Assembly (NCBI GenBank): GCA_029940695.1
Contig: JAPYUP010000006.1
Span: 1-51,372, forward strand
Direction of reading: 5' to 3'
Source of the DNA: Candidatus Thalassarchaeaceae archaeon
GTDB lineage: Archaea > Thermoplasmatota > Poseidoniia > Poseidoniales > Thalassarchaeaceae
Length of the DNA stretch: 51,372 bases
Shown: positions 1 through 51,372 of the stretch, piece after piece
Position numbering within the stretch: the first letter of the stretch is position 1
How the letters are laid out: the number at the start of each line of letters is the position of its first letter
Notes under the pieces: generated by a model
Database searches by the model: none
The model's input: only the letters and a program-made list of their open reading frames with translations
What the model was told of the DNA's origin: nothing
Made by a program: the position numbers and the translations under genes

Positions 1-685
1 AGCCTTCGTCCTGTCCTTGGCCTTGCTGACCGCCGTCCTGGCCCTGTTGTCCTTGGCCCTGTCCTTGGCCCTGTCCTTGGCCCTGTCCTTGACCTTGGCC
101 CTGTCCTTGACCTTGGCCCTGTCCTTGGCCCTGTCCTTGGCCCTGTCCTTGGCCCTGTCCTTGGCCTTCGCCGTCCTCGCCTTCGCCACCGCCCTCGGTG
201 CCTCCGTTGCCCGAGCCGTCTCCGTTGCCCTCGTAGTCCGGGTCGTAGGCATCTGGGATGCCGTCGCCGTCGGAGTCCGAGGCGGCCCCGTCATTGGGGT
301 CGTTCGGGAACGGGTCGTCCGCGTCGTCAGTGCCGTCTCCATCGGTATCAGCCGAGTTGGGGTTGGTTCCAGTCTCGTACTCCTCCGTATTGGTCAAGCC
401 GTCACCGTCGGGGTCGCCGCTGGCATCGCTAGCCGAATTGGGATTGAGGCCGTAATTGACCTCCCATCCATCTGGCATGCCGTCGTTGTCAGTATCAGGG
501 TTATTCATATCAGTTCCAGCGTCTTGCTCCTCGGCGTTGGTGAGTCCATCTCCGTCCCAGTCGGCCCCGCCGTCAGACGGGTCGAGGGGATCGGAACCAT
601 CGGCGCTAACGCCGGTGGATCCCGCCATAAGCACTAGGAGAAGCGCTATCAGTACACTCGTATTTTTCGTTCTCTTCATTTTCAT
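1..685 (-). CDS. Secreted thrombospondin type-3 repeat protein with Gly-Gln repeat tail (partial)
   Basis: The C-terminus runs off the left edge of the window. The ATG at 685 follows a GGAAGTGA-like ribosome-binding site; a second in-frame ATG lies at 679. Residues 1-28 form a signal peptide (basic MKMKRTK, then a Leu-rich core ending near GVSA). At least five acidic calcium-loop motifs of thrombospondin type-3 kind follow, for example DWDGDGLTNAEE, DTDNDGMPDGWE and SDSDGDGIPDAYD, then a Gly/Glu linker and a run of about twenty Gly-Gln dipeptides. The family is extracellular and binds Ca2+ in a rigid rod. The Gly-Gln tail may be a flexible spacer to a C-terminal domain outside the window. The function is unknown; a surface or adhesion role is inferred. 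An inverted repeat (706-724) sits 20 nt upstream of the start. Confidence 0.85.
   Translation of the reverse strand, partial: MKMKRTKNTSVLIALLLVLMAGSTGVSADGSDPLDPSDGGADWDGDGLTNAEEQDAGTDMNNPDTDNDGMPDGWEVNYGLNPNSASDASGDPDGDGLTNTEEYETGTNPNSADTDGDGTDDADDPFPNDPNDGAASDSDGDGIPDAYDPDYEGNGDGSGNGGTEGGGEGEDGEGQGQGQGQGQGQGQGQGQGQGQGQGQGQGQGQGQGQGQGQQGQDGGQQGQGQDEG
45..170 (-). repeat. 12-bp tandem repeat encoding Gly-Gln-Gly-Gln
   Basis: On the minus strand the unit GGCCAAGGACAG recurs in phase, with two places where GGTCAA replaces part of the unit. Every unit is a multiple of 6 bp, so the reading frame is kept and encodes alternating Gly and Gln. Such a tract can change length by replication slippage without breaking the gene. 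Confidence 0.85.
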
Positions 686-48935: not shown

Positions 48936-48948
48936 CGAAACGTTTATG
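48936..48948 (+). promoter_or_regulatory. BRE/TATA-like promoter of the putative RNA
   Basis: CGAAACGTTTATG resembles the strong promoters seen before stable RNAs in euryarchaea. Transcription would start about 25 nt downstream, near 48,969. Confidence 0.5.
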
Positions 48949-49136
48949 TGCCGGTCACTCGCCTGTTGACCTTGCCGCTCCGGGGGAGTGGTGTGAGGGC
49001 GCTTCGGCGCGACTCGCGGGCCACAAAAACCGAACCCCGAAGCCGGGGTGGTGAACCGAGATCTGAAAGGAAATCGGGGAGAGAGCCGGAGCGTCTGTGG
49101 ACGTGAAGGTGGAGCAGCGACGAAATCGGAGGAACC

Positions 49137-49168
49137 GGAGAGAACTGGACGCAAGGAAAGGGAAGGAA
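49137..49168 (+). repeat. 32-bp direct repeat, copy 1
   Basis: Purine-rich segment beginning GGAGAGAACTGGACGC; identical to 49254-49285, 117 bp away. Confidence 0.85.
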
Positions 49169-49253
49169 GGAGAGAGCGAGAGAGAAGTTGCGGAGATACG
49201 CGCGCGTAGGGAGTACTGAAAAAAACCTGGGTCGCGAGAGTGAGGAACGAAGT

Positions 49254-49285
49254 GGAGAGAACTGGACGCAAGGAAAGGGAAGGAA
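49254..49285 (+). repeat. 32-bp direct repeat, copy 2
   Basis: Identical to 49137-49168. Both copies follow a GAGGAAC stretch, so the duplication may extend imperfectly to the left. Confidence 0.85.
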
Positions 49286-49560
49286 ACGGAGGGAAACACT
49301 AGGGCAACAAGGGCGGGGAGACCCGTGGAGGAGCCAGTATCGAACCGTGGAATGAAATGGTGAGAGCCAAGACGGGAAGCGGAGACGGAAAAAGGGGGAG
49401 CGATCCCCAATAAGTCGGAAAATGACGAAAGAACCCTAGAGGTTCCGGAGTCTTCTACCCGGGGAAACCTGGGCCTACGGGCCCGGGGGACACCCGGACC
49501 CTGCGGAGTTAACAGAGGGGGATGCTCCCCCATGTGCAGAACCCTCTGTTGCTCCCACCT

Positions 49561-49574
49561 GTACCGCGCGGTAC
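49561..49574. repeat. Perfect 14-bp palindrome GTACCGCGCGGTAC
   Basis: It follows the last strong hairpin of the putative RNA and lies about 90 bp from the fumC stop. It could be a protein-binding site or the end hairpin of a transcript. Confidence 0.5.
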
Positions 49575-49662: not shown

Positions 49663-51276
49663 TCAAGCGCTTGGTCCTGTCATTTGATCCGCCTTCACCC
49701 ACTCGTCAAATTGCTCGTCGGTCAACATCTCAAGCTCGAGCGCGCTCTGCCTCAATGTGAGGTCTTTCTCATGCGCGTTCTTGGCTATCTTGGCGGCGTT
49801 GTCGTAACCGATATGAGGATTGAGCGCTGTTACGAGCATCAGTGAGTTCTCTAGGTGCTCGGCAATTTTTCCCTCGTTGGCTATGAGGCCAATCACACAC
49901 CTGTCTGCAAACGAGCGGCAGGTGTCTGAGACGAGTCGGACGCTATGGAGCAGATTGTGAATAATCATTGGCTTGAACACATTGAGTTCGAAGTTGCCTT
50001 GGCTACCACCAATCGAAATAGCGGTGTGATTGCCCATAATCTGGCAGCATACCATCGTCATCGCCTCTGACTGCGTGGGGTTCACCTTCCCAGGCATGAT
50101 GCTCGACCCTGGCTCATTGGCGGGCAGCGCCAACTCCCCGAAGCCACAGCGTGGGCCCGAACCGAGCCACCTGATGTCGTTCGCAATCTTCATCAGCGAA
50201 ACGGCTAGGGTATTGAGCGCTCCAGATGCCGCAACGATTGCGTCGTGTGCGGCGAGCTGTGCGAATTTGTTCTCAGCACTGATGAAAGGGAGTTCGGTCT
50301 TCTCTGCAATCCTATGCGCTACTTGGTCGGCAAAGTTCGGATTCGTGTTCAGACCGGTACCCACCGCTGTTCCACCAAGAGCCAGCTCGAAGAGGTCCAA
50401 GAGTGCATGCTCTACCCTAATGACATCGGCGTCCAGCATGGCAACGTATGCACTGAACTCCTGACCTAGCGTCAAAGGCACTGCATCCATCAGGTGGGTC
50501 CTGCCGATCTTTACTATCCCTCCGAACTCGTTCACCTTTTTTGCGAGGGCTGACCGAAGGTGCGTGACTGCAGGTAGTAGGACGTGGTGTATCTCCTCGG
50601 CCGCGGCGATGTGCATTGCCGTTGGGAAGGTATCGTTGCTCGATTGGGCGTGATTGACGTGGTCGTTGGGGTGAACGGGGGTCTTACTACCAAGCTCGCC
50701 ACCTGCCATCTCGATGGCCCTGTTTGCGATGACCTCGTTGGCGTTCATATTGGTCTGCGTCCCGGAACCAGTCTGCCACACTCTCAGTGGGAAGTGCACG
50801 TCAAGTGAGCCAGAGATGACCTCGTCACAGGCGGCTACGATCAAATCCCCAGTCCCTGGGTCCAACTCTCCGAGACCTACGTTAATCTCTGCTGCGGCTT
50901 GCTTGAGAATCCCGAAAGCCCTGATTACCGATCGAGGCATGGTGTCCTCGCCGATGTCGAAGTTCATCAGCGATCGAGCGGTCTGGGCGCCGTAGTACCT
51001 GTCAGCAGGGACTTCGACGTCGCCCATCGTATCCTTCTCCATTCGAGTTTGGTCTGGTGCAGCCCGTGCTTGCCTAGGCCCGGAATCCGAATCTGCCCTG
51101 CTGGATTCCTTGCGTCCAGCCAGCGAGCCCTCGATCATCCTAGAGACTGTTGCTGAGCGTCCGCTCTCGCGTCCCTTGCCGACCCTCGCATCGAGCCGGA
51201 GGGCCAGTTCCTCTGGTACGCTGATGGTGATGATTCGGCGGTTGCCTGCGCGGTGCTTCGCCATGCCGTTCGTCAT
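49663..51276 (-). CDS. fumC: Class II fumarate hydratase with N-terminal ribbon-helix-helix domain
   Basis: 537 residues, about 75 longer than standard FumC. Residues 80-537 are class II fumarase ([35 protein letters not shown], signature [10 protein letters not shown] and [15 protein letters not shown]), interconverting fumarate and malate. Residues 12-56 read as a ribbon-helix-helix DNA-binding domain: strand RRIITISVP, helix [14 protein letters not shown], turn and helix [17 protein letters not shown] Ser/Asp/Gln-rich linker (57-78) joins them. The frame is continuous; the internal ATG at 51042 has no ribosome-binding site. The ATG at 51276 has none either, so a leaderless transcript from the AT-rich upstream DNA is likely; ATG 51264 is an alternative. 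Autoregulation is suggested by the palindrome at the start. Confidence 0.93.
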
Positions 51277-51291
51277 TAATTAGTAATTAAT
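51275..51291. promoter_or_regulatory. 17-bp palindrome over the fumC start, possible operator
   Basis: ATTAATTA-G-TAATTAAT, perfect 8-bp arms around one base, overlaps the first two bases of the start codon at 51276. Ribbon-helix-helix proteins bind short inverted repeats. AT-rich DNA makes chance palindromes easier, so support is moderate. Confidence 0.4.
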
Positions 51292-51354
51292 AAATATTAT
51301 TGTAGGTGGGTTGGTACAATTAGTAATTAATAAATATTATTGTAGGTGGGTTGG
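51278..51354 (-). repeat. Tandem 40-bp repeat carrying the fumC promoter
   Basis: Two copies (51278-51314 and 51318-51354) share 37 identical bases at a 40-bp period. Each holds an AT-rich block with a TATA-like AATATTTATTAA (minus strand) and a CCAACCCACCTAC block. The copy next to the gene would place the TATA element about 20-27 nt before the ATG. Confidence 0.8.
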
Positions 51355-51372
51355 CACATCATAGTCGCTCGA

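What the first reader, a model, noticed from the sequence alone, without database searches (positions are those of the whole stretch)
49663..51276. Fumarase fused to a ribbon-helix-helix DNA-binding domain
Residues 12-56 have the strand-helix-helix pattern of CopG/Arc-type regulators and run in one frame into a complete class II fumarase. A TCA-cycle enzyme carrying its own DNA-binding domain would be a trigger enzyme that could sense fumarate or malate and control its own or other genes. I know of no described RHH-FumC fusion.
Basis: partly seen in the sequence, partly recalled or inferred. Interest (0 to 1): 0.75.

Follow-up and report, generated by a model that had tools for sequence, protein, structure and literature searches.

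The report
Fumarase with its own DNA-binding domain
In a large group of ocean archaea the central-metabolism enzyme fumarase carries a DNA-binding domain of a known repressor type, and a DNA site found so far only in front of its own gene suggests that the enzyme controls its own production.

Summary
Window 49663-51276 (-) is one open frame: a ribbon-helix-helix (RHH, CopG-like) domain, a variable linker, an intact class II fumarase. The fusion is widespread in Poseidoniales: of 60 relatives 55 have a fumarase-level match; 40 of these are fused, 13 not, 2 cut. Of 120 loci found by an RHH peptide in named genomes, 80 were kept and all 80 are fused. RHH codons change mostly synonymously, linker codons do not. 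The conserved start is Met5 (51264), not 51276.

In 60 genomes its 34 matches (27 genomes, all fused) lie at this gene only; 13 fused genomes lack a close match, the 13 unfused have none. A sister order has an unlike extension on a 45-50% identical fumarase and its own palindrome pair, at one place per genome, before fumarase, in 18 of 21 genomes. Best reading: a PutA-like autogenous regulator, probably a repressor. DNA binding, sign of control and metabolite sensing are untested. The held papers showed no RHH-fumarase. The upstream 40-bp repeat borders an assembly gap and is not conserved as such.

The parts
49663..51264 (-). RHH-fumarase gene from the conserved start Met5 to stop (533 aa)
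   Evidence: start M[AGSV][KRQ]H conserved in the loci read; ORF intact; 80 of 80 kept loci fused
51115..51264 (-). conserved N-terminal block (codons 1-50) holding the ribbon-helix-helix domain (predicted strand 9-13, helices 18-28 and 36-48)
   Evidence: low model confidence
51049..51120 (-). linker of about 24 residues, unconserved
   Evidence: codons 51-68: 749 synonymous, 5487 non-synonymous differences; pLDDT under 50 at residues 47-58
49678..51045 (-). class II fumarase domain
   Evidence: (TIGR00979, 766.7 bits)
51276..51294 (-). proposed operator overlapping the TATA-like box, TTTATTAATTACTAATTAA, starting 30 nt before Met5
51316..51334 (-). second copy of the element (2 mismatches to the searched pattern) inside the 40-bp tandem repeat
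51278..51358 (.). 40-bp tandem repeat, 2 copies, close to a scaffold gap just beyond the window end; true copy number unsure

Best explanation
A bifunctional, self-regulating fumarase. The C-terminal part is a normal class II fumarase, a homotetramer by family knowledge. Each subunit carries an N-terminal RHH domain on a linker; four of these would make two RHH dimers per tetramer. They bind the AT-rich dyad-like element that overlaps the TATA-like box 29-31 nt before the start, block the transcription machinery, and so cap the fumarase level: an autogenous repressor of the PutA type. Shown here: the fusion, its conservation and spread, and an element that with at most one mismatch was found only at this promoter. 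Inferred: DNA binding, repression rather than activation, stoichiometry. Possible but without evidence here: gating by fumarate or malate.
For: Fusion intact and conserved. Element TTTATTAATAANTWATTAA with at most 1 mismatch: 34 of 34 matches, in 27 of 60 genomes, lie at this promoter; the reversed control gave 6 matches in 5 genomes. The pattern was written from these promoters, so the test is its absence elsewhere. In the own genome a 16-base version hits only this promoter and the overlap copy across the gap; TTTATTAA occurs in the 51-kb window only here, twice. Spacing nearly fixed: 29 nt in 54, 30 in 15, 31 in 1, not found in 10 of 80 loci. In a 92-row fumarase tree 36 of 47 fused rows and 0 of 30 unfused rows have the element (with two variants that I allowed after seeing the data); the tree forces at least 5 changes of the main RHH label. 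Parallel: f3 has a different conserved extension and TATGCA-N3-TGCATA pairs at one place in 18 of 21 genomes, all before the extended fumarase gene, 0 control hits. No class I fumarase (PF05681) in 40 of 40 relatives and one FumC-level match in the own genome, so it is likely the only fumarase. Precedent: PutA (PMC5293562, abstract and introduction).
Against: No binding or expression data. The window's own RHH score is below Pfam's cut-off and the model has low local confidence. Foldseek found no significant PDB match. 13 of 40 fused genomes have no match to the element within one mismatch and 11 of 47 fused rows lack it, some keeping only TTTATTAA. The element overlaps a TATA-like box, so part of its conservation is promoter function. 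It touches the RHH codons, so one deletion could remove both, and their joint absence is weaker evidence than it looks. The f3 extension is not recognised as RHH by Pfam, NCBIfam, PDB profile search or profile comparison. A cyclophilin gene lies upstream on the same strand, so some transcription could come from there.
Confidence: 0.66

Rival explanations
1. The same fusion, but the RHH domains act as an activator at their own gene, or as a metabolite-gated switch in which fumarate or malate changes DNA affinity.
For: In f3 the palindrome pair lies upstream of a TATA-like stretch rather than on it (by eye), a place that also suits an activator; enzyme and proposed operator are linked.
Against: In Poseidoniales the element overlaps the TATA-like box and lies just before the start, a usual place for a repressor (recalled); no evidence on ligands.
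Confidence: 0.2
2. The AT-rich block is only a strong leaderless promoter (TATA box plus start region) and the RHH-like domain no longer binds DNA; it serves oligomerisation or stability.
For: TTTATTAA lies 29-31 nt before the start in 70 of 80 loci, right for an archaeal TATA box; some fused genes keep only that core.
Against: The longer element was found nowhere else, which a general promoter would not give; R9, R10, S15, G35, R36 and S37 are invariant among 62 N-termini; none of 30 unfused rows has it.
Confidence: 0.12
3. Artefact: chance in-frame read-through of a neighbouring short gene or of non-coding DNA into fumarase.
For: Weak profile score for the window copy alone; window ends at a scaffold gap.
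Against: Same architecture in 80 of 80 kept loci and in 40 of 53 judgeable relatives, with mostly synonymous change.
Confidence: 0.02

Closest known systems
Trifunctional PutA (type C; E. coli, Salmonella)
   Same: N-terminal RHH domain in one chain with a metabolic enzyme; autogenous repressor in PutA (PMC5293562), proposed here
   Different: PutA is a bacterial proline-oxidising flavoenzyme that responds to proline and flavin redox state and also represses putP; here an archaeal TCA-cycle enzyme with no known switch and no second target found
CopG/Arc/NikR-type RHH regulators (Pfam RHH_1, PF01402)
   Same: strand-helix-helix order in prediction, RS before helix 2; NikR is the best, though weak, PDB profile match
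   Different: known ones stand alone or carry ligand-binding domains (recalled), not a central-metabolism enzyme; the window copy scores below the cut-off
Class II fumarase (FumC, TIGR00979)
   Same: full-length domain over the cut-off; mitochondrial and bacterial fumarase structures align from residue 66-78 onward
   Different: the 46 PDB matches listed cover only residues 66 onward, none the RHH part
Other enzymes doubling as regulators (aconitase/IRP, BirA; from recall)
   Same: enzyme is also a regulator
   Different: aconitase binds RNA with its enzyme core, BirA has a winged helix; no RHH (recalled)

Membership tests
RHH superfamily (Pfam RHH_1) | score over the curated cut-off | tested here: inconclusive
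   window copy 13.6-15.9 bits against 20.5: not met alone; 6 of 10 hand-picked orthologues over it; 39 of 40 match at E up to 10
RHH superfamily (Pfam RHH_1) | strand-helix-helix fold | tested here: inconclusive
   full-length model E9-13 H18-28 H36-48 but pLDDT 49-62 there; isolated model shows both helices and only two-residue strand bridges; Foldseek gave no significant PDB match
RHH superfamily (Pfam RHH_1) | dimer with an intermolecular beta sheet that enters the DNA major groove | not testable with these tools
   only single-chain prediction is offered
Class II fumarase | TIGR00979 equivalog score and conserved motifs | tested here: met
   766.7 bits against 664.75; [17 protein letters not shown] and [10 protein letters not shown] stretches conserved in 46 sequences (their role is recalled)
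Class II fumarase | fumarase activity, tetramer | not testable with these tools
   no bench data
PutA-like autogenous regulator | DNA-binding domain and enzyme in one chain | tested here: met
   (DNA binding itself not shown)
PutA-like autogenous regulator | specific site in its own promoter | tested here: inconclusive
   element found only at this promoter within one mismatch, but no binding shown; 13 of 40 fused genomes and 11 of 47 fused rows lack it
PutA family proper | PutA catalytic domains (PRODH, P5CDH) | tested here: not met
   Pfam shows only Lyase_1 and FumaraseC_C: it may work like PutA, it is not a PutA
PutA-like autogenous regulator | ligand- or redox-controlled switching | not tested

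The most novel reading that the evidence does not exclude
Fumarase was turned into its own transcription regulator at least twice in one archaeal class (RHH in Poseidoniales, a different extension with a different private operator in a sister order), lost together with its operator in several lineages, and in one genome (G059) carries another, dissimilar RHH-like domain. The enzyme reads its own fumarate/malate occupancy to set TCA flux: a metabolic sensor made of the pathway enzyme itself.
Probability: 0.3. Interest if true: 0.88.

Novelty: new variant of a known kind. Interest (0 to 1): 0.74.

Why it matters
Enzymes with a built-in DNA-binding domain are few; PutA is the well-known RHH case (recalled; PMC5293562). 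A TCA-cycle enzyme of this type, kept across a large group of uncultured marine archaea, would be a simple, testable circuit for control of central metabolism in organisms whose regulation is hardly known (recalled). One protein and one 60-bp promoter suffice for the test, and relatives without the RHH domain give ready-made controls.

Tried and rejected
Rejected: start at 51276 (residues 1-4 unconserved; touches the element). Rejected: the 40-bp tandem repeat as a conserved operator array; the copy beyond the gap is a 55-bp stretch shared by the two scaffold pieces, as assembly overlap would give (inference).

Led nowhere: Foldseek of the RHH model (one match with E up to 10, prob 0.04); palindrome of genus g13 (7 of 19 genomes, all at the fused gene where coordinates were at hand, near relatives; 4 of 6 other g13 promoters read have TTAATAAC-N11-GTTATTAA); attempts to show that the f3 extension is RHH (negative or chance-level; its likeness is by eye only); phage search with the 5' end (no match). 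Literature: 'fumarase' + 'ribbon-helix-helix' 0 papers; 'ribbon-helix-helix' + 'fumarate hydratase' 1 paper, seen as a listing only, a toxin-antitoxin study; 'Poseidoniales' + 'ribbon-helix-helix' 0; the listings (15 of 375, 1, 7, 1 and 10 of 32 papers shown) name no RHH-fumarase in title or abstract start. The library lacks most subscription journals.

Rows dropped or missed: L028 (cut at contig edge), L056, L199, L217 (short or no start), L060 and L188 (same genomes as L027, L048) were dropped; L058 and L059 are fragments; L216 was not parsed (read as L228). One search used 28 f1 N-termini only and compared linkers position by position without alignment. One search scanned with one peptide pattern, confirmed 120 loci and kept 80. 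Of the 59 distinct full-length rows, 45 went into A3. The match table (339 genomes) is cut, so I took no fusion count from it. The strict motif test found 60 of 80.

Full report
What is there. Window 49663..51276 (-) is one open frame of 537 codons. Residues 78-533 are a class II fumarase, TIGR00979, 766.7 bits against a cut-off of 664.75, with PF00206 and PF10415. Solved fumarases align from residue 66-78 onward, so some 65-77 residues are extra. Within the full protein no RHH match was reported at E up to 10; the first 85 residues alone match only RHH_1, at 13.6 bits, and no NCBIfam model.

Is the extra part real, and is it RHH? Of 60 relatives, 55 have a fumarase-level match; 2 (G003, G009) have none and 3 (G008, G029, G053) only a weak one. 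Reading the N-termini, 40 of these 55 are fused (one of them, G059, with a dissimilar RHH-like domain), 13 start directly at fumarase, and 2 (G011, G033) are cut by contig ends. The first 50 residues from Met5 are conserved. In 28 f1 sequences codons 1-50 show 8145 synonymous against 4446 non-synonymous pairwise codon differences, codons 51-68 show 749 against 5487. These are raw counts without a substitution model, and the linkers were compared without alignment, which inflates their count; still, the domain is kept and the linker varies. 39 of 40 N-termini match RHH_1 at E up to 10 (best 3.4e-5); of 10 hand-picked ones 6 pass the Pfam cut-off, 3 score 19.7-19.9 and 1 does not match. A profile search of the PDB puts NikR first, at E 0.12. 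AlphaFold of the whole protein gives strand 9-13 and helices 18-28 and 36-48, but with pLDDT of only 49-62 there; the isolated domain has mean pLDDT 68.7, and Foldseek finds no significant PDB match. I call it RHH on the sum of these, not on any one.

Who has it. The search for related loci scanned one genome each of 84,980 species with one peptide pattern from the domain; 120 loci were confirmed, the best 80 kept, and 80 of 80 run into fumarase. Their titles name Euryarchaeota, marine group II, Poseidoniales, Poseidoniaceae/Poseidonia or Thalassarchaeaceae/Thalassarchaeum; some are not marked MAG (for example AG-422-I22; by recall single-cell genomes). Shared contig lengths tie family f1 to Thalassarchaeaceae and f2 to Poseidoniaceae. 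Among 292 genomes of the phylum the domain profile matches 59: 49 in f1 and f2, with E 1.2e-16 or better, and 10 elsewhere, E 3.9e-5 or worse, in frames that I did not examine. Genus g7 of f1 lacks the domain in 7 of 7 readable genomes (G248 is cut); the tree puts its fumarase among unfused f2 ones, so it may have come from there (inference).

The start and the promoter. Met5 (51264) aligns with the start of the relatives; 79 of 80 loci begin there with M, one with a GTG codon. TTTATTAA begins 29 nt before it in 54 of 80 loci, 30 in 15, 31 in 1, and is not found in 10: the place of an archaeal TATA box for a transcript that starts near the start codon (recalled knowledge). It runs on into AATAA-n-TwATTAAT. 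I searched 60 whole genomes, many incomplete, for TTTATTAATAANTWATTAA with up to one mismatch: 34 matches in 27 genomes, each beside the fused gene by coordinates (7 are the opposite strand of the same site), none elsewhere; the reversed pattern gave 6 matches in 5 genomes. The pattern was written from these promoters, so only its absence elsewhere is a test. 13 of the 40 fused genomes and all 13 unfused ones have no match. In the own genome a 16-base version gives 3 hits: two in the tandem repeat and one in the stretch repeated across the scaffold gap. TTTATTAA itself occurs in the 51-kb window only here, twice. Fused genes with changed elements: genus g13 has TTAATAAC-N11-GTTATTAA or GTTTAATAAC...GTTAAAC; some Poseidoniaceae have TTTAATAATTAATTA, others only ATTTATTAAA.

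Losses and a parallel. A 92-row fumarase tree needs 7 changes of the main RHH label, at least 5 on well-supported branches. 36 of 47 fused rows have the element, counting two variants that I allowed after seeing the data, and 0 of 30 unfused rows do. Of the 11 fused rows without it, L011 and L013 have a one-mismatch form, and L036 is cut at a contig end whose counterpart contig carries it. By a loose sequence test 30 of 46 main-type fused rows and 5 of 30 unfused rows have the cyclophilin gene upstream, so in those 5 the domain was probably lost in place. Caution: the element touches the RHH codons, so one deletion can remove both. G059 has a different RHH-like domain (phrog_949, E 1.4e-5; no Pfam match) among unfused relatives, with a similar promoter element. 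In a sister order (f3; by recall perhaps marine group III) fumarase is 45-50% identical to the window's and has another conserved extension with YT[S/T]IRVTK near its start, seen in 19 of 21 genomes (in G079 only the first residues). Before it lies TATGCANNNTGCATA twice; the pair with up to 2 mismatches occurs at one place in 18 of 21 genomes, before this gene in all 18 (16 by coordinates, G066 and G079 by reading the start), with 0 control hits; G074 has a diverged version, G061 and G062 have no match. This pattern too was written from these promoters. The extension looks strand-helix-helix to the eye, but no profile supports it.

How it most likely works. The gene follows a cyclophilin-like gene (named by sight) on the same strand, with the element between them; downstream the next gene is convergent. 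It is probably the only fumarase: one FumC-level match in the own genome and no PF05681 in 40 of 40 relatives, while the control genomes ring in 5 of 14. A FumC tetramer with four RHH domains could place two RHH dimers on the element, over the TATA-like box, and shut its own promoter when enzyme is in excess. This is the PutA logic (PMC5293562, abstract and introduction). Shown: fusion, conservation, an element found only here. Inferred: binding, repression, stoichiometry. Unknown: metabolite effect. After checking, the confidence went from 0.68 to 0.66, because 13 of 40 fused genomes lack a close match to the element.

Novelty. RHH-enzyme autogenous regulators are known (PutA); a fumarase of this kind I did not find in the held papers. 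Hence a new variant of a known kind.

Noticed in passing
window 48940-49562 (+): About 610 nt without a plausible gene, convergent with fumarase, 77-83% identical over its long pieces in most genus relatives, with weaker matches in further loci (listing cut). No Rfam match at gathering score in the window, only a chance-level one at E up to 1; fold z-score -2.4 on 20 shuffles; in 20 aligned sequences (one partial) 30 of 140 predicted pairs have at least one two-sided change. Candidate new large structured RNA.
   Followed up: partly
window 51278-51372 and L001 3111-3362: Just beyond the window end lies a 100-N scaffold gap; 55 bases before it are repeated on the other side, so the pieces overlap and the copy number of the 40-bp repeat is unsure.
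   Followed up: yes
window 48-233: Tandem arrays of 12- and 18-base units at the window start.
   Followed up: no
L055 (G059): Fumarase with a different RHH-like N-terminal domain in a lineage of unfused fumarases.
   Followed up: partly
L192-L198, L200 (genus g7): Genus of family f1 with an RHH-less fumarase that groups with family f2 in the tree: possible transfer.
   Followed up: no
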